Assembly (NCBI RefSeq): GCF_000380985.1
Contig: NZ_KB905705.1
Coordinates: forward strand, 1 to 64,000
Reading direction: 5' to 3'
Source of the DNA: Proteiniphilum acetatigenes DSM 18083
Lineage (GTDB): Bacteria > Bacteroidota > Bacteroidia > Bacteroidales > Dysgonomonadaceae
Length of the DNA: 64,000 bases
The notes under the pieces were generated by a model that had not been told where the DNA came from, did no database searches, and saw only the letters and a program-made list of their open reading frames with translations. The translations under genes were made by a program, and so were the position numbers. Numbering within the stretch: the stretch's first letter is position 1; each line of letters begins with the position of its first letter. Of this stretch, positions 18,011-60,136 are shown piece after piece.

Positions 18011-18180
18011 AGTTAGACATTTTGAATCACCTTCGCTCCTCAATTTTCAATTCTGCGCCCGGCAAAACAAATAAATTTGACTTTGTCTTCTTCCTTCGCA
18101 TCTCATCAAAATCCAAACAAGTTTATCCTTTGATTTCGGTTTGTTGTCAGTTGTTCTGCTCTTGCTTAACGAAAATGTTC
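18011..18180 (+). repeat. Dispersed intergenic hairpin element, copy a
   Basis: Long-form copy. The outer arms GACATTTTG and CGAAAATGTTC mirror each other; the middle has AAAC-AA-GTTT, and GCTTAACGAAA closes it. The GAATCACCTTCGCTCCTCAA block is shared with copies b, c, d and f. It lies upstream of pheS. Confidence 0.6.
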
Positions 18181-18213
18181 GCTGAAAACTGGCATAAATA
18201 GTAATAAAATATC

Positions 18214-18221
18214 TATTTTTG
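18214..18221 (+). promoter_or_regulatory. -7 box for pheS
   Basis: TATTTTTG, matching TAnnTTTG, 32 bases before the pheS start. Confidence 0.55.
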
Positions 18222-18252
18222 TAGTGTATACAGGTTTATAAGATTCAACAGA

Positions 18253-19272
18253 ATGATAGAAAAGATAGAGGCTCTGCTCTCTGAAATAAAGCAATTGACG
18301 GTCTCTGCCCCGGAAGAGATAGAGACGGCACGTATAAAATACCTGAGTAAAAAAGGGAGTATATCTTCCCTGATGGATGATTTTCGCACTGTTCCTGCCG
18401 AACAGAAGCGTGAAGTGGGTATGCGGCTGAATGAACTGAAACAGAAAGCGACCGAAAAAATAGAACTATTGAAGAAGCAATTCGAAAACAGCGGTGCAGC
18501 GAACAGCGATATCGACCTGTCGCGCACGGCTTATCCCATACCTTTGGGCACACGTCATCCTCTTTCAATCGTTAAAGAGGAGATTTGTGATATCTTCAAA
18601 CGGCTCGGTTTTTCCATTGCCGAAGGTCCGGAGGTAGAGGATGACTGGCATGTGTTTTCATCTTTGAATTTCGCAGACGATCATCCCGCACGCGACATGC
18701 AGGATACCTTCTTCATTCAGAGCGATCCACAGATCGTGCTGCGTACACATACCTCTTCTGTACAGACCCGTGTGATGGAAAAGTCAGATCCCCCGATCCG
18801 GATCATCTGCCCGGGACGTGTGTACAGGAATGAGGCGATTTCCTACCGTGCCCACTGCTTCTTCCATCAGGTGGAAGCGCTTTATATCGATAAGGATGTG
18901 TCGTTTGCCGATCTGAAGCAAGCGCTGCTCTTTTTTGCCAGGGAGATGTTTGGAGAGCAAACAAAAATACGGCTGCGTCCCTCCTATTTTCCCTTTACCG
19001 AACCCAGTGCAGAGATGGATATCTCCTGTAATATTTGCGGCGGAAAGGGCTGTCCGTTCTGTAAACACACCGGATGGGTGGAGATACTGGGATGTGGCAT
19101 GGTAGATCCCAACGTACTCGAAAACTGCGGTATCGATAGTAAAATCTATTCCGGCTACGCATTGGGAATGGGGATTGAACGTATCACCAACCTCAAATAT
19201 CAGGTGAAAGACCTGAGGATGTTTTCTGAGAATGACGTCCGCTTTTTAGAACAATTTCAATCAGCTCACTAA
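18253..19272 (+). CDS. pheS: Phenylalanyl-tRNA synthetase alpha subunit
   Basis: A 339-residue PheS, the catalytic alpha subunit of the (alpha-beta)2 enzyme that charges tRNA-Phe. The N-terminal coiled coil (residues 1-85) is followed by GTRHPLSIVKEEICDIFKRLGF and the class II core: RTHTSSVQTR, motif 2 (RVYRNEAISYRAHCFFHQVE), RPSYFPFTEPSAEMDI, and motif 3 (SGYALGMGIERITNLKYQV). A CNICGGKGCPFCKHTGW Cys cluster sits before motif 3, as in many PheS proteins. Length is normal. pheT is not adjacent, so the two subunits are encoded apart here. Confidence 0.96.
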   Translation: MIEKIEALLSEIKQLTVSAPEEIETARIKYLSKKGSISSLMDDFRTVPAEQKREVGMRLNELKQKATEKIELLKKQFENSGAANSDIDLSRTAYPIPLGTRHPLSIVKEEICDIFKRLGFSIAEGPEVEDDWHVFSSLNFADDHPARDMQDTFFIQSDPQIVLRTHTSSVQTRVMEKSDPPIRIICPGRVYRNEAISYRAHCFFHQVEALYIDKDVSFADLKQALLFFAREMFGEQTKIRLRPSYFPFTEPSAEMDISCNICGGKGCPFCKHTGWVEILGCGMVDPNVLENCGIDSKIYSGYALGMGIERITNLKYQVKDLRMFSENDVRFLEQFQSAH

Positions 19273-19338
19273 TCTGTGCTGCGCACGTTATTCGGCTACT
19301 GAATAACAATCGAACAACAATTGAATAACTACTGAACA

Positions 19339-20418
19339 ATGATGAGAGTAAAATATTTGATCCTGGCGTTTTTTCTTACGGTCGCCTTCGGTATATCGGC
19401 GCAGAAGACAACACGGGTAAACGCTATCAAGGCCAATAACTACGGTGTCATTTATTCATTGCCAAAGACCTCGTTTGAGGTAACGTTATTAGTGAAGAAA
19501 ACGACTTACCGGAAAGGGGAGTTCTACCCCTACGCACAACGTTACCTGGGAATAGAAAACCCTGTCACTGAAGACAAAATTGTGCACACATTGGAAGATA
19601 TCTCCATAATAAATAAGGGGATACCCGACAAGAATAACTCTTTTATGGTAGCATTCCGTGCCAAATCCTTAGAACCTTTCGTCCATCTCCGGGAAGACGG
19701 AGTGATCGTCACCATCAACGCTGATCCCGAACCTGAGGCGACTCAGATTTTAGAGATTCCCGAAGGGAAGATCCCATCGGGTAATCCGCGCAACTATCTT
19801 TCTCAGGAAGCCCTGATGGCCGGCTCTACGGCGAAGCAGGCCGAGTTGGTAGCCAGGCAGATATTCGGGTTACGCACCAGCAGAACAGACATATTGACCG
19901 GAGAAGCAGAAAATATGCCTCCTGACGGAAATGCATATAAGGTAGTGATGGATGAGATCAATCTGCAGGAGAAAACACTGACAGAGTTATTTGCGGGCAG
20001 CGAAAAGGTCGAATACTTTACTCACAGCTATACTGTTATTCCCGATGAGAGAGGTATTGATCGCAGGGTGATTGGCCGTTTTTCTGAGAAACTGGGACCT
20101 GTGGATGCCGATAACCTTGCCGGAGAACCCATTTACCTGTCTCTGGTGAATAAAACCCCAAAGGTAGAGATGCAATTATCCGAACGCGATTTGAAACGAT
20201 TAGAAAATAAACTCAGTGACGGGATTGTCTACAATGTTCCGGGAAAAGCCGCCTTGACCGTTGAATTCAAAAACACAACGTTGGCAAACAAAGAGGTAGA
20301 CGTGGTACAATACGGTACCCAGGATGTTCTTGTAAGGAGGATGTTCGATAACACCAAACAGCCGATCAAAGTATATTTCTACCCGGAGTTAGGTGCTATC
20401 AAGCAGATTATTCAATAG
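19339..20418 (+). CDS. DUF4831 family exported protein
   Basis: A 359-residue protein with a signal peptide (hydrophobic segment about 5-20, ending GISAQ). The whole mature region matches the DUF4831 pattern known from Bacteroidales: YGVIYSLPKTSFEVTL, YPYAQRYLG, TVIPDERGIDRRVIGRFSEKLGPVD, and a C-terminal beta-rich domain ending PIKVYFYPELGAIKQI. The family is taken to be periplasmic or outer-membrane facing; no biochemical role is known to me. It starts 66 bases after pheS on the same strand and may be co-transcribed. The start uses tandem ATGs (MMR). Confidence 0.8.
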   Translation: MMRVKYLILAFFLTVAFGISAQKTTRVNAIKANNYGVIYSLPKTSFEVTLLVKKTTYRKGEFYPYAQRYLGIENPVTEDKIVHTLEDISIINKGIPDKNNSFMVAFRAKSLEPFVHLREDGVIVTINADPEPEATQILEIPEGKIPSGNPRNYLSQEALMAGSTAKQAELVARQIFGLRTSRTDILTGEAENMPPDGNAYKVVMDEINLQEKTLTELFAGSEKVEYFTHSYTVIPDERGIDRRVIGRFSEKLGPVDADNLAGEPIYLSLVNKTPKVEMQLSERDLKRLENKLSDGIVYNVPGKAALTVEFKNTTLANKEVDVVQYGTQDVLVRRMFDNTKQPIKVYFYPELGAIKQIIQ

Positions 20419-20420
20419 AC

Positions 20421-20524
20421 ATTAGTCGTTTTGAGTCGCCTTCGCTCCTCGATTTTCAATTCTCGCTATGGCATAGCTCAAGCTTGCTTGATCTCTGCTC
20501 ATTTAGCTTAACGAAAACGTTCAA
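20421..20524 (+). repeat. Dispersed intergenic hairpin element, copy b
   Basis: One of the clearest long-form copies: outer arms CGTTTTGAG and CGAAAACG, core TCAAGC-TT-GCTTGA, and ATTTAGCTTAACGAAAACGT at the end. It begins right after the DUF4831 stop. Confidence 0.65.
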
Positions 20525-20561
20525 TAAATCTATATATAATTAGAGATTAAAACAGAATTTT

Positions 20562-21431
20562 ATGAGAACCAAGACTAAATTTGCCTTATCTGTAACTATT
20601 ATTTTTCTTTCCCTCGGATTGGGATTATTGACCAACTGTACCGGAAGAGGAGGTAAAAAATCATCCAGGATAGATTTTGACAGTATTGTGGTGGCACGGC
20701 ATATCCCACTTTTGCAGGAGAACGATACTACCCTGCCCTATGCCGATGTAAATATTTCTTTTACTTATCCTGTGAAATTCAGGGATAGTGAAAGCCTGGC
20801 GCGCTTACAGCAAATATTTCAGGGGACATTCTTCGGCGACAGCAATTATGACTCTCTTCCTCCACAGGAAGCAGTAGATCAATACCTTAAGGAATATACA
20901 GATCGGTATCAATCATTGTCGAATTACTATTACGAAGACAAAGCACGCATAGAAGGAAAGATGCCCTCATGGTACTGGTACATCATGAATAACAGCAATA
21001 AGATATTGTTTCAAAACGATTCGCTGTTGAGTTATGCCGTTGAGTACAGTGACTATGAGGGTGGTGCGCATGGCTCCTACCGGATCACCTATACCAATAT
21101 CGACCTGAATGAGCTGGTCACCCTCACGGAAGAAGATCTGTTCGTACCGGGCTATTTCAAGCCGCTTACGGAAAAAATTGTGGCCCAGTTGATGAAGAAT
21201 TACGATGCGAATGTTCCTGATTCTCTTCTTATGAGGGGATTCTTTACTCTTGAGGATATTGTGCCTAATAACAACTTCTGGCTCGATGCAGAAAATATTC
21301 ATTACTCTTACAACCAGTATGAGATCGCCCCTTATGCTATGGGAGTTATTGATGTATCGGTACCCTATACCGAACTGTCGGATATATTATTGCCGGATGG
21401 TGCTATTTCAAAGTATTTTCTGAAAAAATAA
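20562..21431 (+). CDS. DUF3298 domain lipoprotein (RsiV-like), paralog 1
   Basis: A 289-residue lipoprotein: signal sequence with lipobox LLTNC (Cys26), then a DUF4163/PdaC-like N-terminal half (about 45-150) and a DUF3298 half (about 160-285). The latter shows EGGAHGSYRITYTNIDLNEL and NNFWLDAENIHYSYNQYEIAPYAMG, ending VPYTELSDIL. This fold is shared with the anti-sigma factor RsiV and deacetylase-associated proteins and can bind lysozyme or glycans in some members; the role here is unknown. A paralog with the same layout lies at 47075-47980. It probably sits at the periplasmic face of a membrane. Confidence 0.8.
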   Translation: MRTKTKFALSVTIIFLSLGLGLLTNCTGRGGKKSSRIDFDSIVVARHIPLLQENDTTLPYADVNISFTYPVKFRDSESLARLQQIFQGTFFGDSNYDSLPPQEAVDQYLKEYTDRYQSLSNYYYEDKARIEGKMPSWYWYIMNNSNKILFQNDSLLSYAVEYSDYEGGAHGSYRITYTNIDLNELVTLTEEDLFVPGYFKPLTEKIVAQLMKNYDANVPDSLLMRGFFTLEDIVPNNNFWLDAENIHYSYNQYEIAPYAMGVIDVSVPYTELSDILLPDGAISKYFLKK

Positions 21432-21490
21432 ATCAGGGATTTTTCTCTGATTCTACTTATACTTCTAATTGAACAGGGTAATATTGATAA

Positions 21491-21515
21491 GGGTGCATCA
21501 TAATATGGTGCACCC
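21491..21515 (+). terminator. Possible terminator after DUF3298 paralog 1
   Basis: GGGTGCA and TGCACCC form a 7-bp stem with an 11-base loop, followed by a CT-rich run rather than pure T. It is weak as an intrinsic terminator, but well placed 60 bases past the stop. Confidence 0.4.
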
Positions 21516-21613
21516 CCTCTTCATCTACTTCCCTATTCTGAAATAATCTCAAATCTTCAATTCTGTAACTTAATTTTCCATTTTGAGATATTCAGTTCCA
21601 CTTTATTCAGGGA

Positions 21614-22183
21614 TTAATTGTTCTTGAATTCAAGGAAAAGGGTAATAAATACATCTTTCCCAATACCTGCCCCATCAGGATCAAAAGCAATGTTGTAATC
21701 CAGACGGTTGATCTTGTTCTTGGCAGTAAAACCGACTACCTCCGTTCCGTCTTCTCCTTTTACCACACCACCGTAGACCACATCAAAGGTGACATCTTTG
21801 GTAACATCCTTGATCTGGAGCTTACCATGTAACTTGTACTTGTTATCTTCCACCTTTTCGATACCCGTACTTTCAAATGACATGGTAGGGAATCGTTTCA
21901 CTTCAAAAAAATCAGCACTCCGTAAATGGTCGTCACGCATAGGTATACCGGTATTGATACTTTCCACCTCTACATTAAAAAAGACCCTTGCCGATTCCAA
22001 CTGATCCGGGCTACCAATAATGGCACCGTCGAATTTGTCGAATCGACCCTGTACAAACGTGATACCGTTATGTTTCACCTTGAAATTCACTGAAGCGTGC
22101 GCCGGATCCACTTTATAATTGGATTGCGCCATTAAGCCAAAACAGGCGGTAAAGATGATCGAAAAAAATATTCCTCTCTTCAT
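21614..22183 (-). CDS. YceI family exported protein
   Basis: A 189-residue YceI-like protein. Signal peptide to about residue 19 (ending CFGLMAQ), then the lipocalin-like beta barrel: YKVDPAHASVNFKVKHNGITFVQGRFDKFDG, SARVFFNVEVESINTGIPMRDDHLRSADFFEVKRFPTMSF and KLHGKLQIKDVTKDVTFDV. Family members bind long isoprenoid chains in the periplasm, and some respond to base or osmotic stress; the ligand here is inferred only. Length is typical. It is monocistronic and divergent from sufB. Confidence 0.92.
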   Translation of the reverse strand: MKRGIFFSIIFTACFGLMAQSNYKVDPAHASVNFKVKHNGITFVQGRFDKFDGAIIGSPDQLESARVFFNVEVESINTGIPMRDDHLRSADFFEVKRFPTMSFESTGIEKVEDNKYKLHGKLQIKDVTKDVTFDVVYGGVVKGEDGTEVVGFTAKNKINRLDYNIAFDPDGAGIGKDVFITLFLEFKNN

Positions 22184-22370
22184 ATGTTATTTTTTAAATT
22201 AAAAATAAGGACGATTTATCGATTTGTTGATTTACTGTTTAGCAGATAATAAATCATCGCATCGTTAAATCATCAATTTAATCAATTGATATACTAATTA
22301 ACATTCAGAAAGCAATGATTGTTCAATCTTTACCCATGTAACTCATTCAAAAGAATTAGTGAAAAATCAC

Positions 22371-22378
22371 TATCTTTG
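22371..22378 (+). promoter_or_regulatory. -7 box for sufB leader
   Basis: TATCTTTG, an exact TAnnTTTG match. Transcription would start near 22384, giving a leader of about 140 bases. Confidence 0.55.
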
Positions 22379-22383
22379 TACAA

Positions 22384-22500
22384 CAAAAGCACCAGCTTGG
22401 TTGTTAGTAAAAGCCGGAGGCTTTGTCTCCCGTAATAAATCGGCCATAACGGCCGGAAATGGGCTTTTTCATTACCCTGTTCTTTTATCGCGGGAAAAGT
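22384..22500 (+). ncRNA. Structured leader (possible attenuator or sRNA) before sufB
   Basis: The segment between the -7 box and sufB is unusually GC-rich for this genome's gaps. It contains nested complementary stretches: an outer AAAAGCC with GGGCTTTTT, an inner GGAG/CTCC pair, and a perfect CGGCC-ATAA-CGGCCG type hairpin. The outer helix ends in TTTTTC, so it could act as an intrinsic terminator or attenuator. A second short helix (CCC...GGG) lies just before the start. No known riboswitch class is recognised. Confidence 0.45.
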
Positions 22501-22525
22501 CCAATACAAATAAATATAATGAGTT

Positions 22526-23977
22526 ATGCAAGAATTAGATCAAGATCAAATATTAAGCGAGTTAACTACTCAGGATTATAAATTCGGTTTCACTACCGAT
22601 GTGGAAACTGAAGTCATTGAGAAAGGGTTGAATGAGGATGTCATCCGGCTGATTTCGGCAAAAAAGGGGGAACCTGACTGGTTGCTCGAATTCCGGTTGA
22701 AATCCTATCGCCACTGGTTGACGATGGAAATGCCGGATTGGGCGCATCTGAAGATCCCTGAGATTGATTATCAGGATATCATCTATTATGCCGATCCTAC
22801 AAAGAAGAAAAGTCCGAAAAGTCTGGACGAGGTAGATCCGGAATTGTTGAAGACTTTTGAACGTCTGGGAATTCCCCTCGAAGAACAGAAGCAGCTTACA
22901 GGTGTTGCGGTAGATGCCGTGATGGATAGTGTTTCCATCAAAACCACCTTCAAAGAGGTACTTGCCGAGAAAGGGATTATTTTCTGCTCGTTCAGTGAAG
23001 CGGTAAGGCATCATCCTGATCTGGTAAGGAAATATTTAGGAACGGTTGTCCCCTATAAGGATAACTATTATGCAGCGCTGAACTCGGCAGTATTCAGCGA
23101 CGGTTCATTCGTATATATTCCGGAAGGTGTACGCTGCCCGATGGAACTTTCTACCTACTTCCGTATCAACACGGCCAATACCGGCCAGTTTGAACGTACA
23201 CTTATCGTGGCCGACAACAATGCTTATGTGAGTTACCTCGAAGGGTGTACCGCTCCTATGCGTGACGAGAACCAGCTCCACGCAGCTATCGTGGAAATCA
23301 TCGCTCTCGATCATGCCGAAGTGAAGTATTCTACGGTACAGAACTGGTACCCGGGTGATAAAGAAGGAAAAGGCGGTGTCTATAATTTCGTCACCAAGCG
23401 TGGTATTTGTAAAGGGGTCCACTCCAAAATCTCCTGGACACAGGTAGAGACCGGATCGGCCATCACCTGGAAATATCCCTCCTGTATTCTGGCGGGAGAC
23501 TACTCGGTAGGTGAGTTTTACTCGGTTGCGGTTACCAATAACTATCAACAGGCCGACACCGGCACCAAAATGATCCATATAGGGAAAAATACCCGCAGCC
23601 GCATCGTCTCCAAAGGGATCTCCGCAGGCAGTAGCCAGAACAGCTACCGGGGATTGGTGAAGGTGACCCAAAAAGCGGAAAATGCACGTAACCACTCGCA
23701 ATGTGACAGTCTGCTGCTGACCGACCATTGTGGGGCTCACACTTTCCCTTATACCGATATCCACAATCCTACGGCTGTACTTGAACATGAAGCGACCACC
23801 TCCAAGATCAGTGAAGATCAGATTTTCTACTGTAACCAACGCGGTTTAGGTGAAGAAGAAGCCATCGGACTGATCGTAAACGGATATGTGAAGGAAGTGG
23901 TGAATAAACTGCCGATGGAATTTGCCGTAGAGGCGCAAAAATTACTTCAGATCAGTCTGGAAGGAAGCGTCGGATAA
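22526..23977 (+). CDS. sufB: Fe-S cluster assembly scaffold SufB
   Basis: A 483-residue SufB, the scaffold of the SufBCD complex on which Fe-S clusters are built in the cytosol. Length and motifs match the family: [40 protein letters not shown], the beta-helix core ([39 protein letters not shown]), and the conserved [13 protein letters not shown] and [20 protein letters not shown] segments. In most Bacteroidetes sufB is followed by sufC, sufD and sufS; here it is alone, followed by convergent ung. It may be controlled by the structured leader upstream. Confidence 0.96.
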
Positions 23978-23999
23978 GGCCTTGATGGATTTATCCGAC
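23969..23999. terminator. Inverted repeat between sufB and ung
   Basis: GTCGGATAA and TTATCCGAC form a 9-bp stem with a 13-base loop. The sufB stop codon lies inside the first arm. There is no T run, so a bidirectional terminator is only likely because the genes converge. Confidence 0.45.
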
Positions 24000-24011
24000 A
24001 CTCTCCCGACC

Positions 24012-24674
24012 CTACCAATTGATCGGCTCCATGTTATGAGCCGACAGGTATTCATTGGCCTTGCTAAAGTGCTTATTACCAAAGAATCCCCTATGAGCAG
24101 ACAATGGCGAAGGGTGTGGTGAATTAAGAATAAGATGCCTGTTCGCATCGATATTAGCCCCTTTTCGCTGGGCATAAGACCCCCAAAGGATAAAAACCAG
24201 ATGGTCACGCTCTTCAGCTAAACATCTGATGGCGGCATCGGTAAACTCTTCCCATCCTCTTCCCTGGTGTGATCCGGCACGATGCGCCTGCACCGTCAGG
24301 GTAGCATTCAGTAGAAGCACTCCCTGTTTCGCCCATCTCGTCAGATTTCCCGAGCGGGGCACAGGTATTCCCAGATCATCCTCTATCTCCTTATAGATAT
24401 TAACCAATGAAGGGGGGATCTGTACTCCATCATTCACAGAGAAGCATAATCCATGTGCCTGTCCCGGTTCATGATAGGGATCCTGCCCCACTATCACCAC
24501 TTTCACCTTGTCGAAAGGACAACTGTCGAATGCATTGAAAATCAGCTTTGCCGGCGGATATACGGTTTTAGTAATATATTCTTTCCGCACGAAATCGGTC
24601 AATGTCCTGAAATAAGGTTTTTCAAACTCCTGCTGAAGATGCACCTTCCAGCTTTCCTCTATTTTTACATCCAT
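24012..24674 (-). CDS. ung: Uracil-DNA glycosylase
   Basis: A 220-residue family 1 UDG that removes uracil from DNA. The water-activating loop is GQDPYH (63-68, catalytic D65), followed by GLCFSVNDGVQIPPSL, GVLLLNATLTVQAHRAGSHQ, and the DNA-intercalation loop HPSPLSAHRGFFG (187-199). The size matches E. coli Ung. The ATG at 24674 (MDVKIEESWKVHLQQEF) is preferred; an in-frame ATG 11 codons upstream is possible. It is convergent with sufB and preceded by a gap containing an AGAAGTAAAGAA-type short repeat. Confidence 0.96.
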   Translation of the reverse strand: MDVKIEESWKVHLQQEFEKPYFRTLTDFVRKEYITKTVYPPAKLIFNAFDSCPFDKVKVVIVGQDPYHEPGQAHGLCFSVNDGVQIPPSLVNIYKEIEDDLGIPVPRSGNLTRWAKQGVLLLNATLTVQAHRAGSHQGRGWEEFTDAAIRCLAEERDHLVFILWGSYAQRKGANIDANRHLILNSPHPSPLSAHRGFFGNKHFSKANEYLSAHNMEPINW

Positions 24675-25838: not shown

Positions 25839-25870
25839 ATTACTTTAATGTGATTTCGATTTTGAATCTA

Positions 25871-26886: not shown

Positions 26887-26904
26887 GTAAGTTTAATTTT
26901 ATTA

Positions 26905-27080
26905 CACTATTTGAGTCGCCTTCGCTCCTCGATTTTCAATTTTCGGCTATGGTATATTCGAGTAAACTTAGTTGTTTTCTACGCTCAACAAACGGAAAAC
27001 TTGTTTTCCCTTTGTGTTCGCTTATCGAAAACATTCTAAGCAAGTTTAGTCTTTGCTCATTTAACTTACCAAAATAATTC
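26905..27080 (+). repeat. Dispersed intergenic hairpin element, copy c (composite)
   Basis: Starts like other long copies (CTATTTGAGTCGCCTTCGCT) but contains two 3' halves in a row, CGCTTATCGAAAACATTC and CATTTAACTTACCAAAATAAT. It looks like a nested or tandem copy. It fills the pyrK-pyrD gap, and its end overlaps the pyrK stop codon. Confidence 0.55.
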
Positions 27081-31453: not shown

Positions 31454-31525
31454 TGAGACTATTTCGATAGTGATGAACACCGAGGAAAAACTTGTGTAGA
31501 CTATATCGAACATAGAAAATGTCTA
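31454..31525 (-). repeat. Dispersed intergenic hairpin element, copy j (degenerate)
   Basis: On the minus strand: GACATTTTCTATG at the start, a weak ACAAG-TTTTTC core, and CTATCGAAATAGTC at the end. It resembles copies g and h but is degenerate. It lies just upstream of the glutathione peroxidase gene. Confidence 0.35.
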
Positions 31526-34615: not shown

Positions 34616-34760
34616 TGAATAATGAAGAAGTTGAGAAGTGAAGAAAATCAACTTTCCCAGAAATAGGGACAAGTTCCTGAAGAATCGGGACAAGTTATCC
34701 TGACTTGTCGGGATCGCCACATCAACCTAATCACTTTCCCACCTTCCTACTTTCCCCCAA

Positions 34761-35655: not shown

Positions 35656-35797
35656 GTGCTTTTACAGATTCTTTTCACATTTTCTACCTGTTTTCAAAAT
35701 GCACGATCCATCCATGCTTTTAATCTGCGGCACAAAAAAGCCGAGACTGAATATTGTCCCGGCCTCTTTTGACAGAAATTCATTATTTATTTCATAA

Positions 35798-35902
35798 GTT
35801 AGTCGTTTTGAATCGCCTTTACTCTTCGATTTCCAATTCTCGCTATGACATAGTACAAGCAAGCTTGTCCTCTGTGCTCATTTAGCTTAACGAAAACGTT
35901 TA
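35798..35902 (+). repeat. Dispersed intergenic hairpin element, copy d
   Basis: Long-form copy with outer arms CGTTTTGAA and CGAAAACG, core ACAAGC-AA-GCTTGT, and TTTAGCTTAACGAAAACGTT. Its last bases contain the TAA stop (minus strand) of the OmpP1/FadL gene. Confidence 0.65.
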
Positions 35903-40460: not shown

Positions 40461-40492
40461 GCCTGTTCACTTTATTAAATAGTTCAATTACA

Positions 40493-40563
40493 TTTAGACT
40501 ATTTCTGTGCTCGGCATAATCAAAGCAAGCTTTGTTTCTGCTCTTGCTTAACGAAATAGTTCA
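40493..40563 (+). repeat. Dispersed intergenic hairpin element, copy e
   Basis: Short-form copy: outer arms GACTATTTC and GAAATAGTTC, core CAAAGC-AA-GCTTTG, and CTTGCTTAACGAAATAGTTC. The arms differ from copies b and d (CGTTTT) but still match each other. It lies in the predicted leader of the SPOR gene. Confidence 0.65.
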
Positions 40564-46388: not shown

Positions 46389-46462
46389 CATTAGTCGTTT
46401 TGAGTCGCCTTCACTCCCCGATTGTTAATTCCTACAGTGCCAAAGTTCAATTCAACTTAACG
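46389..46462 (+). repeat. Dispersed intergenic hairpin element, copy f (partly decayed)
   Basis: Begins TTAGTCGTTTTGAGTCGCC like copy b, then CAAAGTTCAATTCAACTTAACG; the core and last arm are degenerate. Its CTTAACG carries the TAA stop (minus strand) of rsmG. Confidence 0.55.
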
Positions 46463-51490: not shown

Positions 51491-51570
51491 TGAACATTTT
51501 CGTTAAGCAATATGAACAGAAGACAAGCTTGCTTGGATTATGTCGTCATTGCGAGAAAATGTCTGATGAA
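51491..51570 (-). repeat. Dispersed intergenic hairpin element, copy g
   Basis: On the minus strand: arms GACATTTTC and CGAAAATGTTC, core CAAGC-AA-GCTTG, and GCTTAACGAAAATGTTCACC. It is a short-form copy in reverse orientation. The rest of the gap 51366-51748 has only the hairpin below. Confidence 0.65.
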
Positions 51571-51616
51571 ATTGAACTATTAAAATAGTTTAAACAAAGA
51601 AACTTAATTTTCTTCA

Positions 51617-53112: not shown

Positions 53113-53157
53113 TGACAATATTTCAGATTTTTCAATCTATAATAAATAATTAGAACA

Positions 53158-54150
53158 ATGGTAACTTATAAAGAATTGGGTCTTGTAAACTCAAGAGAGC
53201 TCTTTAAGAAAGCAGTAGATGGCGGTTATGCTATCCCTGCCTTCAATTTCAACAACATGGAACAACTTCAGGCCATTATCTCGGCCTGCGTTGAAACAAA
53301 GTCACCTGTGATCCTGCAGGTATCCAGCGGCGCACGTAAATACGCCAATCAGACATTATTGCGTTATATGGCTCAGGGAGCTGTGCAATATGCAAAAGAA
53401 CTGGGTTACGAAATTCCTATCGTACTCCATCTCGATCATGGCGACAGCTTTGAGCTTTGCAAGGATTGTATAGAGAGCGGTTTCTCTTCTGTGATGATCG
53501 ACGGATCACATCTTCCTTACGAAGAAAACATCGCCCTGACAAAGAAAGTGGTTGAGTATGCTCATCAACACGATGTAACTGTAGAAGGAGAACTCGGCGT
53601 ATTGGCAGGTATTGAAGACGATGTACAGGCAGAACACCACACCTATACCGAACCCGATGAGGTAGTAGATTTTGTGACACGTACCGGCGTTGATTCACTG
53701 GCTATCTCCATAGGTACTTCGCATGGTGCTTTCAAGTTTACTCCTGAACAATGTACCCGCAACGAACATGGCGTATTGGTTCCGCCCCCCTTGCGCTTCG
53801 ATATTCTGGAAGAAATTGAAAAACGAATCCCCGGATTCCCCATCGTTCTTCACGGATCTTCTTCCGTTCCCCAGCAATATGTGGAAACTATCAACAAATA
53901 CGGAGGAAAACTGGATGATTCAATCGGTATCCCCGAAGAACAATTGCGCAAAGCTGCCAAATCGGCTGTTTGCAAGATCAATATCGACTCCGACGGACGT
54001 TTGGCTATGACTGCAGCCATACGTGAAGTATTCGCCACCAAACCGGCTGAATTCGACCCGCGTAAATACCTGGGTCCGGCACGTGAAGAGTTGAAGAAAC
54101 TTTATATGCACAAAACTGAAAATGTATTGGGAAGCGCCGGAAGAGCGTAA
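53158..54150 (+). CDS. fba: Class II fructose-1,6-bisphosphate aldolase
   Basis: A 330-residue zinc-dependent aldolase of glycolysis/gluconeogenesis. Metal and substrate motifs are HLDHGDSFELC (H88-type ligand), VEGELGVLAGIEDDV, SIGTSHGAFKF, and VLHGSSSVP, in order. The start VTYKELGLVNSRELFKKAVDGGYAIPAFNFNN is typical of the type IIB aldolases. Length is normal. It is monocistronic, with a clear promoter and a strong terminator. Confidence 0.97.
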   Translation: MVTYKELGLVNSRELFKKAVDGGYAIPAFNFNNMEQLQAIISACVETKSPVILQVSSGARKYANQTLLRYMAQGAVQYAKELGYEIPIVLHLDHGDSFELCKDCIESGFSSVMIDGSHLPYEENIALTKKVVEYAHQHDVTVEGELGVLAGIEDDVQAEHHTYTEPDEVVDFVTRTGVDSLAISIGTSHGAFKFTPEQCTRNEHGVLVPPPLRFDILEEIEKRIPGFPIVLHGSSSVPQQYVETINKYGGKLDDSIGIPEEQLRKAAKSAVCKINIDSDGRLAMTAAIREVFATKPAEFDPRKYLGPAREELKKLYMHKTENVLGSAGRA

Positions 54151-54173
54151 CCATACAAGGACAACATAATTTG

Positions 54174-54214
54174 AAAAGAGGGTGTATCACAATGTGATTT
54201 TTACCCTCTTTTTT
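54174..54214 (+). terminator. Terminator of fba
   Basis: AAAAGAGGGT and ACCCTCTTTTTT form a 10-bp stem with a 19-base loop and end in a T run, 24 bases past the stop. Confidence 0.9.
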
Positions 54215-54396
54215 CATATTTACTTCTACCCGAAAATTCTTAAAATCTCACTTTTACAATTCGCCCTTTTATCTATAATCCCGATTTTATCTCCCCAGTC
54301 CCCACTATTCCTTCTCAAATCTGCACATCGTTAAATCAATAAATCATCAAATTAACTTTCCTACCTTTCCACCTTATCACTTTTCCACCTTTTATA

Positions 54397-57066
54397 TTAC
54401 CTCCGGGAAAGCGCTTGCATTTTTTTATTGAAACCAGTCTCCCTTAGCAGATCGTCCAAAGAGATATGCATCCTGTAGCGCCAGTAGTGTTCAGGATTTG
54501 CAGGTACATTGATCCGTTCACTGGAAATATCGGGGTTACGAAGTTTTTCATCGAGCGACAGCCAGTCCTGTAACGGCAGGATCACCCACATGGCCGACGA
54601 ACGGAGATGACGTTCAATGATCTGCCGGCAGATAGTAATATTACACTCTGCCGGAGCAACTCCTTCGTGATGTAACACTTCGTTGTAATAGCGTTGTGTG
54701 AGTTCCCGGTTTTCAGTCCACCATAAACGTAGGGGTGACATATCGTGGGTAGAGGTAGTACATACGGACAGATAGGGCAATTGCTGCAGATCGGTGAAAG
54801 TGACGTATGGATCTTTAGGCATCCGTTCGATCTCCAGGCTTAACATCTGCAATTCATGCATCACTGACGGTACACAGTCTGGGACCATACCTAAATCCTC
54901 TCCACAGACCATCATCCTGGTGGATGAGATAAGTACCGGTAATTTCTTCATTGCCACTTCACGCCAGAAATAGTTGTGCCGGTGATAATAAAATTCGTCA
55001 TACAGGCGGTTGAATGCCTCCTTTACGTGAGTGTCAAGATAGCGATACGAATGAGTATATTGCGCCGTAATACGGGGATGATACCGGTGATGATCCTGCG
55101 GATCACGTACGAAGAGCACCTCTGCACATAGCGACATAAGCCCGTCGCATATCCTGCGACTCTTATCATCTTTTTTATTATCAAATAGTTGCTTTATTTT
55201 CCTTTGGGTGTCGCACTGCGATTTCAATTTAAATCGCTGCCATCCTGTTGGCTCAAGATATTCCCTCTTCACCTCTTCGGTATGCTCTGCAAAGATATCC
55301 GGCAAAAAGTGCTCATGAATAAACGGTTGTACCATCCGCTCCTCATCAAAGGGGATTCCCGCACGATTGATCTCTTCTACCCAGAAAGGCAATGCCGGCC
55401 TGAAGTGGCCAAGTGATCCCTGTACGGCGTCAAGTGGTATTTCCCAGATACGGAAAAATCCCAGAATATGGTCTATCCTGTAGGCATCGAAATAATCTGC
55501 CATCTTGCGAAAACGGGTTACCCACCAGACATATCCATCCTTTTCCATCATCTGCCAGTTGTAAGTGGGAAATCCCCAGTTCTGACCGAAGAAGGAAAAA
55601 TCGTCGGGCGGCGCACCACTTTGGGTATCCATATGATAGAGGTCAGGAGCTACCCATGCGTCTATGCTGTTACGGCTGATACCGATGGGGATATCTCCTT
55701 TCAGAGCCACTCCCCTTTCATTGGCATATACTTTCACGCCGGAGAATTGCTGATGAAGCAGGTATTGCAGGAAAGCCCAGAACTGCGTCTCCTCCTTTGC
55801 TTCGGTATCGGTATCAATCATTTTCTTCAATAACACTTCATCATAACCGGCATAGTCGCCCCACTCCCTGAAATCAGCGCAGCCATATTTATCACGCAGG
55901 AAACAGTAACATACATAGGGAAAAAGCCATGATTCGTTTTTCTCCCGGAAAGCAATATAATCTTCCGAAGCAAGTACCTTCTCCCCCTCCTGATGATAGA
56001 GCTCCCGGCTATAGCGGGTTTTTAAAGACAGTACCTTTTCATAGTCCAGTTCCGGCAGGCTGTTCAGTTCTCTCGCTTCTTTCAGGAAAGCACTATGATT
56101 TTTCTTGACTTTCAGCCGATAGTCGCTGCATCCCAGATATATAGGATGGAGGGCATAGGCCGATATAGCACTATAGGGATATGAGTCGCGCCAGGTTTTA
56201 GTGGCTGTGGTATCGTTCACAGGCAACAACTGGATCAACTGCTGATGGGTGACTGCTGCCCAGTCGACCATCTTGCGGAGATCGGCAAAATCACCCACTC
56301 CGAAGCTTTCATCCGTTCTCAGGGAGAAAACCGGAATAGCCGTCCCCGTTCCCCGATAGGCAAAACTCTGGTAGTGAAAGTGCAAAGCCATTTCTACAAG
56401 CACCCGGTTTCCTGTATGCACTGCCTCTGCTGTCAAAACACGATTTCCGCCATCTTCCCAGTGTACCGCCTCACCGCTATTCTTATCTGTAATCACAAAC
56501 TTATACTCACTCTTTGCGGGTAGTTTTTTCGCATCGAGTGTTATCTGCCACTCTCCTTCGTCAAGATAAGAGAGAGGTTTTGCCAACTTCAGATCCCATT
56601 GCCCCAGCTCCTCACATTCACCGCTGATCATCAGCATCTGATCGCCTGCGACATAAGGACAGATCACATTTAACAAAACAGTCTGAGAATAATACTTTGT
56701 AGGGAGAGGAGTTGCTTTATGCCGGAAAACAGTATCGGTAAAGACCGTGGAGTATAGATAGGAATGGTACGACTTGTTCTTCCAAAGATCGTTAATAATA
56801 AACTCTTTCCGGCCTTTTGTAATGTGAAGTTTGCGGTTATTCCCCCATTCACGGCGAACGGTGTGTCCGCCTTTCCTGATGAAATAGTAATAGGCGACAT
56901 CGGTCGTTTCTCCAATACTCACAGTTGCCGACCAATTGTCGCCATCGGCGGCAAGAGGGATCGCCTGATCTTCATTTAAGTTTCCCAGTTCCGGCGTAGT
57001 CCCGCAAAGACAGACCTGCTCTCCCCAGGCAGTATGATAATTGATTGTAAATGTAAGGTGTGCCAT
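54397..57066 (-). CDS. malQ: 4-alpha-glucanotransferase with starch-binding domains
   Basis: An 889-residue GH77 amylomaltase of the Bacteroidetes type. Two N-terminal CBM20 starch-binding modules (about 1-105 and 120-225; NYHTAWGEQVCLCGTTPELGNL at the start) precede the catalytic barrel. Catalytic motifs include DAYRIDHILGFFRIWEIP (nucleophile Asp region), CGEDLGMVPDCVP (acid/base Glu) and STHDMSPLRLWW. It rearranges maltodextrins by transferring glucan segments and is cytosolic, since it has no signal peptide. The start at 57066 (MAHLTFTINYHTAWGEQ) is preferred over one six codons upstream. No other glycogen genes are adjacent. Confidence 0.95.
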   Translation of the reverse strand: MAHLTFTINYHTAWGEQVCLCGTTPELGNLNEDQAIPLAADGDNWSATVSIGETTDVAYYYFIRKGGHTVRREWGNNRKLHITKGRKEFIINDLWKNKSYHSYLYSTVFTDTVFRHKATPLPTKYYSQTVLLNVICPYVAGDQMLMISGECEELGQWDLKLAKPLSYLDEGEWQITLDAKKLPAKSEYKFVITDKNSGEAVHWEDGGNRVLTAEAVHTGNRVLVEMALHFHYQSFAYRGTGTAIPVFSLRTDESFGVGDFADLRKMVDWAAVTHQQLIQLLPVNDTTATKTWRDSYPYSAISAYALHPIYLGCSDYRLKVKKNHSAFLKEARELNSLPELDYEKVLSLKTRYSRELYHQEGEKVLASEDYIAFREKNESWLFPYVCYCFLRDKYGCADFREWGDYAGYDEVLLKKMIDTDTEAKEETQFWAFLQYLLHQQFSGVKVYANERGVALKGDIPIGISRNSIDAWVAPDLYHMDTQSGAPPDDFSFFGQNWGFPTYNWQMMEKDGYVWWVTRFRKMADYFDAYRIDHILGFFRIWEIPLDAVQGSLGHFRPALPFWVEEINRAGIPFDEERMVQPFIHEHFLPDIFAEHTEEVKREYLEPTGWQRFKLKSQCDTQRKIKQLFDNKKDDKSRRICDGLMSLCAEVLFVRDPQDHHRYHPRITAQYTHSYRYLDTHVKEAFNRLYDEFYYHRHNYFWREVAMKKLPVLISSTRMMVCGEDLGMVPDCVPSVMHELQMLSLEIERMPKDPYVTFTDLQQLPYLSVCTTSTHDMSPLRLWWTENRELTQRYYNEVLHHEGVAPAECNITICRQIIERHLRSSAMWVILPLQDWLSLDEKLRNPDISSERINVPANPEHYWRYRMHISLDDLLRETGFNKKMQALSRR

Positions 57067-57189
57067 TAGGTAATATCTATTCACTATTTATGGTTGACAA
57101 ACAAAGCTACAATGTTTCATGAACGGGTCGGATAAAAAACGGGCCTTTTTATCCGGATTCCCGTGCAATCGTTTGCGGGACGGTAAGGG

Positions 57190-58860
57190 TCAGAGGAAGA
57201 GAAGGATCAGCAACTGGGCTGTGATCACCCTGAGAAACATCGTAAGGGGGTAGACAGTAGCATAACTCACCGCGGGCATATCATTCCCTGCCGTTGTGTT
57301 CGCATAGGACAATGCAGGAGGATCAGTCATACTACCCGCAATCAATCCCATCAACGTAAAATAGTTCAGTTTATATACTTTCCGACCAATGACACCTATA
57401 ATCAGAAGGGGTACAACGGTAATAATCACTCCATAGCCCACCCATTTGTATCCGCCATTTATCACGGTTTCGACAAAATTCTCTCCTGCTCCGAGTCCTA
57501 CACAGGCAAGGAACAGGGCAATACCTATTTCCCTCAACATCAGATTGGCGCTCATAGTCGTATAAGTCACAAGCTTATACTTCGGACCGAATTTACTGAT
57601 CAGGATAGCCACAATCAGCGGTCCACCTGCCAGTCCCAGTTTTACCGGTTGGGGAACGCCGGGGATCATAAAGGGAATGCTTCCCACGAGTACCCCCAAT
57701 GCAATACCTATAAAAATAGAGATAAGGTTAGGTTCCCTAAGGCGTTTCAACGAGTTACCAAGGAACTTTTCAACGTTGGCGATAGCTTCTTCAGAGCCTA
57801 CGACTGTCACCCGGTCGCCCAACTGCAACTGAAGCCTGGAGTCAGCAATCAGGTCGACCCCTGCACGATTCACCCGGGTAATATTGATGCCAAACAGATT
57901 CCGCAATTTCAGACTGCCTATGGAGCGTCCGTTAATTGCCGGTTTGGTAATCGATATTCTACGTGAAACCAGTTGTGAATCCAATTTATTCCATTCCCCC
58001 CTGTCCATATCAATACGCTGTCCGATAAAGGCTTCAATCACATCAATATTCTTCAGGTTGGAAACTACCAGTACCCTGTCGTTCTCTTCGAGTACCGTCT
58101 CTGTTTGAGGAACATCCAGCATGCCTGTTCTTGCATGTAATACCCTCGATATGACAAACTCTTTATCGATCAACCGCTTCACTTGTCGGATATTTTTTCC
58201 GAAGATAGAGGGATTAATCACCTGCAAGGAAAACATGTGTGCTTCCGTCATCCTGGAGGCATCATTATTGTCCAGCGTGCTGTTCTCTTTGGCAAAATTG
58301 ATCTTGAATATATATCTGAAAAGAACGATACTCATAATGATTCCCACTACTCCCAGGGGATAGGCAACTGCATAAGCCGTAGCAATAGTAGGATCGGTAG
58401 TTCCCGTTACATCGGTATAGGTTTGTTGCGCAGCCCCTAATCCCGGGGTATTGGTAACTGCCCCCGACAATATGCCTACCATAGTGGCGATGGGCAATCC
58501 GGTTACTAAATGGATAATATAGGTGATAAATACTCCCAGCAGCACTACACCTGATGCGAGCATATTGAGAGTGATCCCTCCCTGTTTAAACGATGAAAAG
58601 AAGCTGGGACCCACCTGCATCCCTATGGAGTAGATAAACAGAATCAGTCCGAATTCCTTCAGGAAATGAAGCACATTTTCATCGATCTGCAGACCGATAT
58701 GCCCGAGAAATATACCGAAAAAGAGTATCCACGTCGTCCCGAGCGAAATACCGAAAATCTTTATCCTGCCCAGTAACAATCCGACCGAAATCACCAATGC
58801 CATCACAAGTATTGAATGCGCAATGCCCGTTCCGGCAATTAACTCTATCAACCACTCCAT
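57190..58860 (-). CDS. AspT/YidE-type transporter with two TrkA-C domains
   Basis: A 556-residue inner-membrane transporter of the aspartate:alanine exchanger family (AAE; E. coli YidE/YbjL). The order is: N-terminal membrane domain of about five helices ([40 protein letters not shown]), two tandem RCK_C/TrkA-C ligand-binding domains (about 205-370: [34 protein letters not shown]), then a second membrane half ([17 protein letters not shown]). The AxxxNTPG / SxTxPPAL pair is diagnostic. The substrate is not known; putative amino acid exchange. A -7 box with a -33 match is upstream. Confidence 0.88.
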
Positions 58861-58912
58861 ATTTTAATAACCTAAAAACCGTTAAATTTATTAGTCCTTT
58901 TGAAAATCAGTG

Positions 58913-58920
58913 CAAAAGTA
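58913..58920 (-). promoter_or_regulatory. -7 box for the AspT/YidE-type transporter
   Basis: Minus-strand TACTTTTG with a TTTG 19 bases upstream, so both promoter halves are present. Confidence 0.55.
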
Positions 58921-58929
58921 GCGCTTATT

Positions 58930-59769
58930 TTATTGAAAACAAAATATAGCCGTAACCCACTGGTCTATTTCGGAAAAGTGTCCGTAAGTTAATCCCTGTG
59001 CTTCAGCAGCAGCACGGATAGCGGGAATATCTTCTTTATAAAAACCACTCATTATCAACACTCCATTTTTATTCAGCACCTGCGTATAAGCCGGTATATC
59101 CTGCAGGAGAATATTCCGGTTGATATTGGCCAGGATCACATCATACGTTTCATCGCCGAGCAATTCCGCTCCGCCCTGTAACAGGTTAATGTTGTCGATA
59201 CCATTCAATCGCGCGTTTTCCATCGCATTATGGTATGCCCATTCATCTATATCGACGGCAGTTACCGGTGAAGCGCCCCTCATGGATGCCAGAATAGCCA
59301 GTACAGCGGTACCACAGCCCATATCGAGAAGAGATTTGCCTTGCAGATCCATTTTCAACAGTTCTCTCATCATCAACTCAGTGGTTTGGTGATGACCTGT
59401 GCCGAATGACATTTTGGGATCTATCAATATACAGTATCTGAACTCACCCCCAATCTTGTGGAATGAACTATGAATGCATAACACATCATCAATAACGACG
59501 GGTTGAAAGTAATTCTTCTCCCACTCCTCGTTCCAGTTTTTGTCTTCCATTTCACTGTATGAATAAGTGATCTCCGCTTCCAGCGGAAAGTCGGATAGAA
59601 GTTGATCTACTTTTTCCAGTGATAGTACTGGTAAAGGGATATAAGCCTCCAGCCCCGTTTCCGTCCGGACAAACGACTCGAACCCGATCTCACCTAACTG
59701 AGCCGAGAGAACATCTGTCAACACCTCTGTATTGGGTTCACAATTGAATTGGACCTGTATATATTGCAT
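58930..59769 (-). CDS. prmA: Ribosomal protein L11 methyltransferase
   Basis: A 279-residue PrmA that trimethylates L11 lysines with SAM. The N-terminal substrate-binding domain (MQYIQVQFNCEPNTEVLTDVLSAQLGEIGFESF) is followed by the methyltransferase core: PKMSFGTGHHQTTELMM, motif I LLDMGCGTAVLAILASMRGA, DIDEWAYHNAMENA, and the NPPF-like loop as LANINRNILL. The latter is the family's variant. It ends 70 bases from the transporter gene. The -7 box lies 24 bases before the start. Confidence 0.95.
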   Translation of the reverse strand: MQYIQVQFNCEPNTEVLTDVLSAQLGEIGFESFVRTETGLEAYIPLPVLSLEKVDQLLSDFPLEAEITYSYSEMEDKNWNEEWEKNYFQPVVIDDVLCIHSSFHKIGGEFRYCILIDPKMSFGTGHHQTTELMMRELLKMDLQGKSLLDMGCGTAVLAILASMRGASPVTAVDIDEWAYHNAMENARLNGIDNINLLQGGAELLGDETYDVILANINRNILLQDIPAYTQVLNKNGVLIMSGFYKEDIPAIRAAAEAQGLTYGHFSEIDQWVTAIFCFQ

Positions 59770-59792
59770 GATGATTATTCAAAAATAAAGGA

Positions 59793-59800
59793 CAAAGGTA
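59793..59800 (-). promoter_or_regulatory. -7 box for prmA
   Basis: Minus-strand TACCTTTG, an exact match to TAnnTTTG, 24 bases before the start. Confidence 0.55.
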
Positions 59801-59872
59801 GTCAACTATTTCGATAAGTAATACGAACAACAGACAAACTTGTTTGAACTTTATGGTGACACCAAAAAATGT
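59801..59872 (-). repeat. Dispersed intergenic hairpin element, copy h
   Basis: On the minus strand: core CAAAC-AA-GTTTG, ending CTTATCGAAATAGTTGAC. It immediately follows the prmA -7 box, so it occupies the -10 to -80 region of that promoter. Confidence 0.5.
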
Positions 59873-59989
59873 AAAAATCATTTTACTTTAGGGAGTCATT
59901 TGTTTATTTGTGTTACAAATGAAGTTGATTTTGCCGATAAGAACCGGAACTTATCTTTTTTTGTCCTATTTTTATTCGCTTAAAAAATT

Positions 59990-60058
59990 AATCGTTCTTT
60001 TGTGATAACATAATCCGGACAAATTCGTCTTCTGTATATCACTTAACGAATAAGTTCA
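59990..60058 (+). repeat. Dispersed intergenic hairpin element, copy i1
   Basis: Short-form, degenerate: CATAATCCGGACAAATTCG, then CACTTAACGAATAAGTTC. It is directly followed by copy i2. Confidence 0.45.
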
Positions 60059-60062
60059 CTGA

Positions 60063-60136
60063 AGTTAGTCGTTTTCTCGCTATGGCAAAGTTCAAACAAG
60101 TTTGACTTTGCTCATTTAGCTTAACGAAAAAGTTCA
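60063..60136 (+). repeat. Dispersed intergenic hairpin element, copy i2
   Basis: Short-form and well preserved: TTAGTCGTTTTCTCGC, core TCAAAC-AA-GTTTGA, and TTTAGCTTAACGAAAAAGTTC. It lies 22 bases before the TPR gene start and would be in its leader. Confidence 0.6.

What the first reader, a model, noticed from the sequence alone, without database searches (positions are those of the whole stretch)
18011..60136. Family of dispersed intergenic hairpin elements with covarying arms
At least eleven gaps (18011-18180, 20421-20524, 26905-27080, 31454-31525, 35798-35902, 40493-40563, 46389-46462, 51491-51570, 59801-59872, 59990-60058, 60063-60136) share an ordered structure: an outer 5' arm, a central mini-hairpin, the conserved GCTTAACGAAA, and an outer 3' arm. 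The arms differ between copies yet match within a copy: CGTTTT with AAAACG (b, d), ACATTTT with AAAATGT (a, g), CTATTTC with GAAATAG (e). The core varies the same way: ACAAGC/GCTTGT, CAAAGC/GCTTTG, CAAAC/GTTTG, always around an AA (or TT) loop. Such compensatory change points to selection on, or copying through, a folded form: a REP/MITE-like or RNA-level element. No associated transposase is in the window.
Basis: partly seen in the sequence, partly recalled or inferred. Interest (0 to 1): 0.75.

Follow-up and report, generated by a model that had tools for sequence, protein, structure and literature searches.

The report
Mobile DNA hairpins across Bacteroidales
The window carries copies of a small jumping DNA hairpin, found in various bacteria of the order Bacteroidales, that sits between two TT dinucleotides and keeps its two arms matching while its letters change; which enzyme moves it is unknown.

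Summary
Nine of eleven gaps match a covariance model at E<=0.0015. The own genome has at least 115 copies. 33 of 37 genus genomes have copies, as do 35 of 393 sampled genomes of the order, own included, against one non-own genome in a phylum sample of 395. Covariation is strong: 332 double-change cells, 0/500 shuffles. G·T and A·C mismatches are equally rare (39 and 49 of 2374 cells), which points to DNA rather than RNA. Ten copies are cleanly absent at orthologous sites of relatives; the unit reads TT|C–mini-hairpin–TAG–long hairpin–G|TT. Units nest and form 79-nt tandem arrays. The 5' mini-hairpin covaries too. A Y1/RAYT transposase is missing from the own genome and the other high-copy genomes, bar one weak fragment; IS91 and reverse transcriptases do not fit well. 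Best reading: a Bacteroidales-wide non-autonomous mobile hairpin, moved as folded single-stranded DNA by an unidentified enzyme; it behaves like REPs or yeast mitochondrial GC clusters but is not shown to belong to either.

The parts
18005..18177 (+). composite hairpin element a (with S module); absent in two relatives
   Evidence: empty site in G010 and G015; exact GCTTAACGAAA at 18164; model score weak
18024..18050 (+). 27-nt S module (small hairpin) flanked by TT on both sides
20421..20519 (+). hairpin element b (T1 core, S module at 20433-20459)
   Evidence: CM E=1.6e-9; S module; inner part missing in G010
26901..27075 (+). composite element c: a T3-type unit (26956-27043) nested in another unit, S module at 26913-26939; outer ends approximate
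   Evidence: CM E=1.7e-10; nested part missing in G010, whole absent in G015
31454..31525 (-). hairpin element d, decayed
   Evidence: CM E=2.1e-6
35793..35898 (+). hairpin element e (T1 core, S module at 35810-35836); clean insertion
   Evidence: CM E=2.6e-9; empty site in G010 and G015
40485..40559 (+). hairpin element f (T3 core), simple unit
   Evidence: CM E=1.1e-17 (in training set)
46389..46462 (+). probable decayed element g (S module at 46402-46428)
   Evidence: CM E=0.13 only; S module
51495..51574 (-). hairpin element h (T2 core), simple unit; clean insertion
   Evidence: CM E=3.2e-16 (in training set); empty site in G010
59801..59872 (-). decayed element i
   Evidence: CM E=0.0012
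59990..60052 (+). element j, shared with G010
   Evidence: CM E=0.0015; present in G010
60057..60132 (+). hairpin element k (T1 core), simple unit directly after j
   Evidence: CM E=5e-18 (in training set); extra relative to G010

Best explanation
This is a family of non-autonomous mobile DNA hairpins. A simple unit is about 74-80 nt plus a shared TT. In the genus of the window it reads: C, a variable mini-hairpin of about 3-4 bp, TAG (or CAG), then a long imperfect hairpin (7 bp outer stem; asymmetric internal loop with the constant TTAAC; short stems with bulges; inner stem; two-base loop), ending in G, and it sits between two TTs. SHOWN by comparison: individual copies are cleanly absent from relatives, the unoccupied site has a TT there, copies nest inside other copies and form tandem arrays, and both helices are kept by compensatory change within the genus and in 35 copies taken mostly from other genera. 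INFERRED: absence means insertion in the window's lineage (five of the ten are absent from both relatives). INFERRED: the unit is recognised and moved as folded single-stranded DNA; an enzyme cuts next to TT on both sides of the folded strand and joins the piece to another TT, so the second TT is either the element's own cut site or a 2-nt duplication. INFERRED: the enzyme acts in trans; it was not identified. Selection for foldability, or repair of one arm from the other during transfer, keeps the arms matched while their letters drift.
For: Mobility: clean empty sites for window copies a, e, h (a and e also in G015) and for L018, L027, L029, L035, L051, L052, L053. Net lengths 76-82 nt for the seven simple ones, 107, 110 and 175 for those with S module or composite. 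Target rule: where the own right flank read TTG or TTA (L018, L051; L035), the left junction still reads TTC, so C is the element's first base and TT is shared. All ten have TT at both ends and TT in the unoccupied relative. In own copies TT follows the hairpin in 55 of 61. Nesting and 79-nt tandem arrays. Fold: 332 double-change cells, 21 of 23 pairs changed on both sides, 0/500 shuffles; 35 copies mostly from other genera: 162 double-change against 12 one-sided cells. DNA rather than RNA: G·T 39, A·C 49 (binomial p 0.34); in 27 well-formed copies 92 double-change against 3 one-sided cells. 5' mini-hairpin: 13 of 21 distinct 9-mers have >=3 bp, reshuffled halves mean 6.1, 1 of 5000 reaches 13; order-wide >=4 bp in 11 of 35 against 1 of 35 control stretches.
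Against: No enzyme was found, so the strand form is inferred. There is no replication-strand bias (35 of 76 merged copies co-directional in G015, my sum, with origin and terminus only estimated), whereas IS200/IS605-type single-strand transposition usually shows one (recalled). One insertion, L029, has a 12-nt direct repeat (TTCATCAAAAAC) and no 5' mini-hairpin, and copy e may share TTT. In L027 own and relatives differ right of the junction, so its target letters are uncertain. Of 22 loci queried, 3 gave no orthologue, 5 were too rearranged to call, 5 had the copy in the relative(s) that aligned and 2 aligned only up to the element. A single-stranded DNA hairpin should also tolerate G·T better than A·C on its active strand (recalled), so the near-equality singles out no active strand. 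Precise loss in a relative is not excluded for copies absent from only one (h, L029, L035, L051, L053).
Confidence: 0.55

Rival explanations
1. A REP-type element whose Y1 (RAYT/TnpA_REP) transposase has been lost from, or only visits, these genomes. The TTAG/TCAG next to the hairpin foot would be the counterpart of GTAG.
For: The same kind of junction would result (cut next to a dinucleotide, no real duplication). PMC6006769 (passages) reports a Bacteroidetes Y1 subclass (2.6) flanked by atypical secondary structures with copies elsewhere in the genome. One copy, in G128, lies about 0.2-0.5 kb from Y1 genes. 11 of 18 element-bearing genomes of the order have some Y1 gene.
Against: No Y1 match in the own genome, G007, G013, G015, G020 or G030; G010 has one weak fragment; 6 of 39 genus genomes have any. 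None of the 10 genus Y1 loci has an element within the roughly 1.5 kb held on each side. Of 40 Y1 matches in the 18 order genomes 30 were held as loci and none of these has an element; L228, fetched for its element, has both. E. coli TnpA_REP cuts at CT and needs GTAG (PMC8266576 passages).
Confidence: 0.25
2. A retro-element: a folded RNA copied into DNA by a reverse transcriptase acting in trans and inserted at TT by target priming.
For: The seven higher-copy genomes tested (G000, G007, G010, G013, G015, G020, G030) all have an RVT_1 match, in G020 only one below the family cut-off, and the four zero-copy ones have none. L029 looks like a 5'-truncated copy with a 12-nt duplication. A similar suggestion has been made for yeast mitochondrial GC clusters (PMC4478555 passages).
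Against: G·U is no commoner than A·C. Of ten RT-bearing proteins named, seven score best as group II intron maturases (one of them, L208, just above that cut-off), two as Drt3a/Drt3b, one is Drt4-like below cut-off, and one is a DnaG-like protein with a faint RT match; none is beside an element. G020 (at least 71 copies) lacks a clear RT and G031 (7 copies) has none. Genome size confounds the correlation.
Confidence: 0.12
3. Arms match because palindromes are repaired from their own other arm (template switching), with no selection on a folded substrate.
For: Changes occur on both sides almost without one-sided intermediates (92 against 3 cells). Adjacent tandem units in L138 differ by one compensatory change in the mini-hairpin.
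Against: Full-arm copying would erase the bulges and the asymmetric internal loop, which persist in the genus and in many other genera. The conserved unpaired letters need another reason.
Confidence: 0.1
4. A host-serving structured RNA or terminator, copied around.
For: Mostly outside long open frames: 8 of 60 cores inside one, against 22 of 60 for control positions in the same loci.
Against: By the ORF list the window copies lie between divergent genes (18011, 31454, 59801-60136) or tandem genes, none between convergent ones; copy number in the genus ranges from 0 to at least 115; no Rfam match at E<=0.1 in ten element loci.
Confidence: 0.04

Closest known systems
REP sequences and REPINs with RAYT/TnpA_REP (PMC3116915 listing only; PMC3733652 and PMC8266576 passages)
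   Same: Short intergenic palindromes with bulges, high copy number, patchy occurrence, groups of units, a short motif at the hairpin foot, subfamilies with compensatory stem letters.
   Different: TTAG/TCAG instead of GTAG, TT instead of CT at the junctions, longer (about 77 nt) with a second 5' mini-hairpin, no Y1 gene found in the own genome, head-to-tail arrays, no G·T excess (PMC3733652 says GT pairing was often observed in GTAG repeats).
CGTC-tagged REPs (PMC3733652 passages)
   Same: Palindromic super-family reported from five phyla including Bacteroidetes, apparently without a dedicated transposase.
   Different: 8-9 bp stems with a CGTC tag; no such tag was seen here and the unit is larger with two hairpins.
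Yeast mitochondrial GC clusters (GC42; PMC4478555 passages)
   Same: Mobile palindromes, a dinucleotide (AG) at the target, merging and shuffling of clusters, constraint on the palindrome, mechanism unsettled.
   Different: Mitochondrial and GC-rich; no sequence comparison made and no sign of common descent.
IS200/IS605 ends (single-stranded transposition; recalled, and as summarised in PMC8266576 passages)
   Same: Folded ends, insertion beside a short fixed sequence without target duplication.
   Different: No transposase gene found, no replication-strand bias seen, one short unit carries the whole fold.
MITEs of Porphyromonas gingivalis such as BrickBuilt (PMC4596501 listing; named in PMC10969869 passages)
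   Same: Small intergenic repeats in Bacteroidales.
   Different: Not compared by sequence; the unit here has no constant terminal inverted repeat.

Membership tests
REP/REPIN (RAYT-mobilised) | GTAG tetranucleotide at the hairpin foot | tested here: not met
   TTAG, TCAG, ATAG in the genus; TGA, CTTG and others outside it
REP/REPIN (RAYT-mobilised) | Y1 transposase gene in the genome, flanked by the repeats | tested here: not met
   no match in own genome; 0 of 10 genus Y1 loci and 0 of 30 order Y1 loci hold an element; L228 holds both
REP/REPIN (RAYT-mobilised) | short imperfect palindrome in many extragenic copies | tested here: met
MITE of a DDE transposon | constant terminal inverted repeats | tested here: not met
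   the left 11-12 nt vary as palindromes and the outer arms differ between genera
MITE of a DDE transposon | fixed-length target-site duplication | tested here: inconclusive
   TT at both ends in ten of ten empty-site comparisons can be a 2-nt duplication or a cut site; e may share TTT and L029 shares 12 nt
Structured RNA family | G·U pairs tolerated more than A·C on the transcribed strand | tested here: not met
   39 against 49 of 2374 cells
Structured RNA family | match to a described family | tested here: not met
   only tmRNA matches in the window at gathering thresholds; none at E<=0.1 in ten element loci
IS91-derived element | Y2 transposase in carrier genomes | tested here: not met
   2 of 12 genomes match PF04986: G013 and the zero-copy G005; none in own, G015, G020, G030, G007, G010
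IS200/IS605-type single-strand element | orientation bias with replication (recalled) | tested here: inconclusive
   35 of 76 co-directional in G015, origin and terminus only estimated
Integron attC | RYYYAAC...GTTRRRY boxes and an integron integrase | not tested
   only looked at by eye: the G|TT junction is attC-like but the order of the boxes is reversed (sequences); integrase not searched

The most novel reading that the evidence does not exclude
An order-wide class of mobile DNA that consists of nothing but a two-part hairpin (mini-hairpin plus long bulged hairpin), inserted into TT dinucleotides as folded single-stranded DNA by an enzyme not related to known Y1, Y2 or reverse-transcriptase partners, with the smaller 27-nt S module and the 5' mini-hairpins moved by the same machinery.
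Probability: 0.35. Interest if true: 0.85.

Novelty: new variant of a known kind. Interest (0 to 1): 0.62.

Why it matters
Small mobile palindromes without a known enzyme (CGTC REPs, mitochondrial GC clusters) are an old puzzle. That makes the question of what moves such hairpins directly testable: by gene content against copy number, and by assaying folded oligonucleotides with cell extract.

Tried and rejected
Y1 transposase as resident partner: searched in 39 genus genomes and 18 element-bearing order genomes, nearness of element and Y1 tested; rejected as resident partner, kept as a rival. IS91 and RVT_1: do not match copy number, or are of other known kinds. Genes beside element arrays or clusters in G015 and G013 (L191-L194): ten proteins scanned, ParA/ParB, H+-pyrophosphatase, LpxC, LpxD, LptF/G and others, no recombinase. 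The idea that the 5' palindrome is copied from the target: L018 speaks against it, L029 alone would fit. An attC-like reading (G|TT): noted by eye, not followed. A conserved site in L224, L231, L232, L244: flanks look alike; neighbouring ORFs were only glanced at, not settled. The tRNA control for G·T against A·C (22 against 0 in 12 tRNAs) is weak because ARAGORN draws the structures itself; a first attempt to parse it returned nothing. The pattern hit in Alkalicoccobacillus (L083) was not found by the model and is taken as chance. A first S-module pattern was too narrow (4 copies); the wider one gave 24. Literature: the listings showed no description of this family; only open-access full texts are covered, so this is no proof that it is unpublished.

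Rows dropped before counts: 72 of 79 genome matches of GCTTAACGAAA were read (the seven on contigs C19, C20, C22 and C25 were not fetched). 27 of 28 simple copies were aligned (L049 left out). R1 in the own genome scored 150 of 2806 candidates, and R2 in the order 13 per genome, so counts there are lower bounds. Of 22 loci queried for empty sites, L038, L040, L045 gave no orthologue; L015, L020, L030, L034, L046 were too rearranged to call; L011, L014, L050, L063, L064 had the copy where the alignment ran through; L037 and L057 aligned only up to the element. The 100 sources for alignment A3 were a choice among the loci then held. L243 was left out because its flanks repeat L242. The phylum sample also contains some genomes of the order.
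Full report
CHECK. The eleven gaps were read. Orientation differs between copies; after turning the - strand copies the shared order is 5' outer arm, core stem, two-base loop, core stem, GCTTAACGAAA, 3' outer arm. I aligned 27 simple copies from the own genome, named the structure and counted pairs: 86.9% of 613 cells pair, 15 of 24 pairs change on both sides, 73 cells changed on both sides, 0 of 500 shuffles as high, and slid controls fall to 32-46%. The model R1 built from it finds 9 of 11 window gaps at E<=0.0015 without filters. Three of those nine were in its training set. The 46389 copy (E 0.13) is decayed and scores no better than an unrelated place at 9858 (E 0.12); 18011 is composite (E 0.31) but has a clean empty site.

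COPY NUMBER AND SPREAD. GCTTAACGAAA occurs 79 times in the 4.78-Mb genome against 3 for the reversed pattern. R1 gives 115 matches at E<=0.001, a lower bound because only 150 of 2806 candidates were scored. In the genus 33 of 37 genomes match, own included, and 0 of 24 from other genera in the same run, which used stricter filters. A pattern scan of the genome collection gave 44 stretches, most of them in records named Proteiniphilum, Petrimonas, Fermentimonas, Dysgonomonadaceae or Bacteroidales/Bacteroidia, with single ones in Prevotella, Parabacteroides, Paludibacter and (chance) Alkalicoccobacillus; 0 in viral contigs. The names of genus and order for the window are inferred from these records. 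A second model of the core alone, R2 (27 rows, three of them from outside the genus: L075, L102, L105), matched 35 of 393 genomes of the order in 25 of 207 genera, own included, and 2 of 395 in a phylum sample, one of them the own genome and the other of another order. Equal contig lengths identify G010 as Proteiniphilum sp. X52, G012 as Proteiniphilum sp. UBA5384 and G031 as Fermentimonas sp. NTP30; this is inference from length.

FOLD. On 106 aligned matches (A3, 104 distinct) 21 of 23 pairs change on both sides, 332 such cells, 0/500 shuffles. Thirty-five copies mostly from other genera (A5) keep the same fold with quite different outer arms (TTTTTGC/GCAAAAA, AGATAGC/GCTATCT, AAGTTTT/AAAACTT, ACATAC/GTATGT and others): 162 double-change cells against 12 one-sided. 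A3 and A5 were fitted to the model, which favours the structure; searches used MAFFT alignments and agree. In helix 2 (the 4 bp next to the internal loop) only 55-72% of cells pair, because T3-type copies lack it. The asymmetric internal loop (TC against TTAAC in the genus) and the bulges are kept.

DNA OR RNA. In A3 the cells at named pairs hold 2067 Watson-Crick, 39 G·T, 49 A·C and 219 other letters. A structured RNA should tolerate G·U far more than A·C on its own strand (recalled); here neither strand is favoured (binomial p 0.34). One-sided steps are nearly missing in 27 well-formed copies (3 against 92). Twelve tRNAs from the same loci gave 22 G·T and 0 A·C, a weak control because ARAGORN draws the stems. 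No Rfam family other than the tmRNA matches. PMC3733652 (passages) says GT pairing was often observed in GTAG repeats, so this is a difference from those.

MOBILITY AND TARGET. Relatives G010 (mostly 92-95% identity over the window) and G015 (mostly 80-92%) lack individual copies exactly. Window copies a, e and h have clean empty sites in G010, a and e also in G015. A query of 22 flanks of other own copies found 19 of them in G010 or G015, 33 places. Clean empty sites: L018 and L052 in both, L027 in both but with a diverged right flank, L029, L035, L053 in G015, L051 in G010; L029 and L053 are occupied in G010. Five of the ten are thus absent from both relatives; for the others a precise loss is not excluded. 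In L018, L051 and L035 the own right flank reads TTG, TTG and TTA while the left side reads TTC, so C starts the element and TT is common to both ends. After the hairpin TT stands in 55 of 61 own copies, and the third letter is C in 46 of 61; in the order-wide set TT stands in 22 of 35 by strict count. The exception is L029: 12 nt repeated and no mini-hairpin. In e the shared letters may be TTT.

MODULARITY. A second hairpin of 27 nt (S module, GAGTCGCCTTCGCTCCTCGATTTTCAA) stands in 24 places in the own loci read, each time between TT and TT, and repeats in tandem with period 29. T3-like units sit inside other units in several loci (window 26956-27043, missing in G010). G020 and G030 have arrays of 79-nt units. 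The 5' mini-hairpin varies and pairs: 13 of 21 distinct 9-mers have at least 3 bp against a shuffled mean of 6.1, 1 of 5000; order-wide at least 4 bp in 11 of 35 against 1 of 35 control stretches, shuffles 2 of 2000.

LOOKING FOR THE ENZYME. PF01797 (Y1): 6 of 39 genus genomes, none of own, G007, G013, G015, G020, G030; G010 has one weak fragment; no element in any of the 10 loci held. In 18 element-bearing genomes of the order 11 have Y1 genes, 30 of 40 matches were held as loci, and only L228 (G128) holds both a copy and Y1 genes, one of which has a YIDRQQIHH motif that resembles the subclass 1.2 signature quoted in PMC6006769; with ten Y1 matches in that genome this may be chance. PF04986: 2 of 12. 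RVT_1: 7 of 12, mostly group II intron maturases and Drt-type proteins, no clear partner. Strand against replication in G015: 35 of 76 merged copies co-directional (my sum; origin and terminus estimated from partial GC skew).

PLACE IN WHAT IS KNOWN. It works like a REP or a yeast mitochondrial GC cluster (PMC4478555 passages: AG at the target, merging, mechanism unsettled), but fails two tested REP features. Of PMC6006769, PMC3733652, PMC8266576, PMC4478555 and PMC10969869 I read passages only; other papers named were seen in listings.

Noticed in passing
window 19296 and 27975 (insertions in G010, L113 region): G010 carries insertions of about 330 and 180 nt that share AGAAACTGTTTTGAATTTTACGAG and AAAATTCAAAACAG: another small repeat family with inverted ends.
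   Followed up: no
window 34657-34756: About 100 bp absent in G010 with a palindrome-like ATCGGGACAAGT...ACTTGTCGGGATCG; not matched by the model.
   Followed up: no
window 1269-2204 (-): Fragment of a group II intron-like reverse transcriptase at the start of the contig.
   Followed up: partly
L201 1309-4943 (own genome C17): Adjacent Drt3b and Drt3a antiviral reverse transcriptases.
   Followed up: no
G013: 21 of 24 merged copies lie in the first 2.44 of 3.9 Mb of this single-contig genome; no explanation.
   Followed up: no
L224, L231, L232, L244: Copies in different genera share similar flanks on both sides (such as TTACTTTCAGTGA before and TTCGACC after), as if an older, larger unit or a conserved site.
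   Followed up: partly
L029 around 336-424: The only clean insertion with a long (12-nt) direct repeat and no 5' mini-hairpin.
   Followed up: partly
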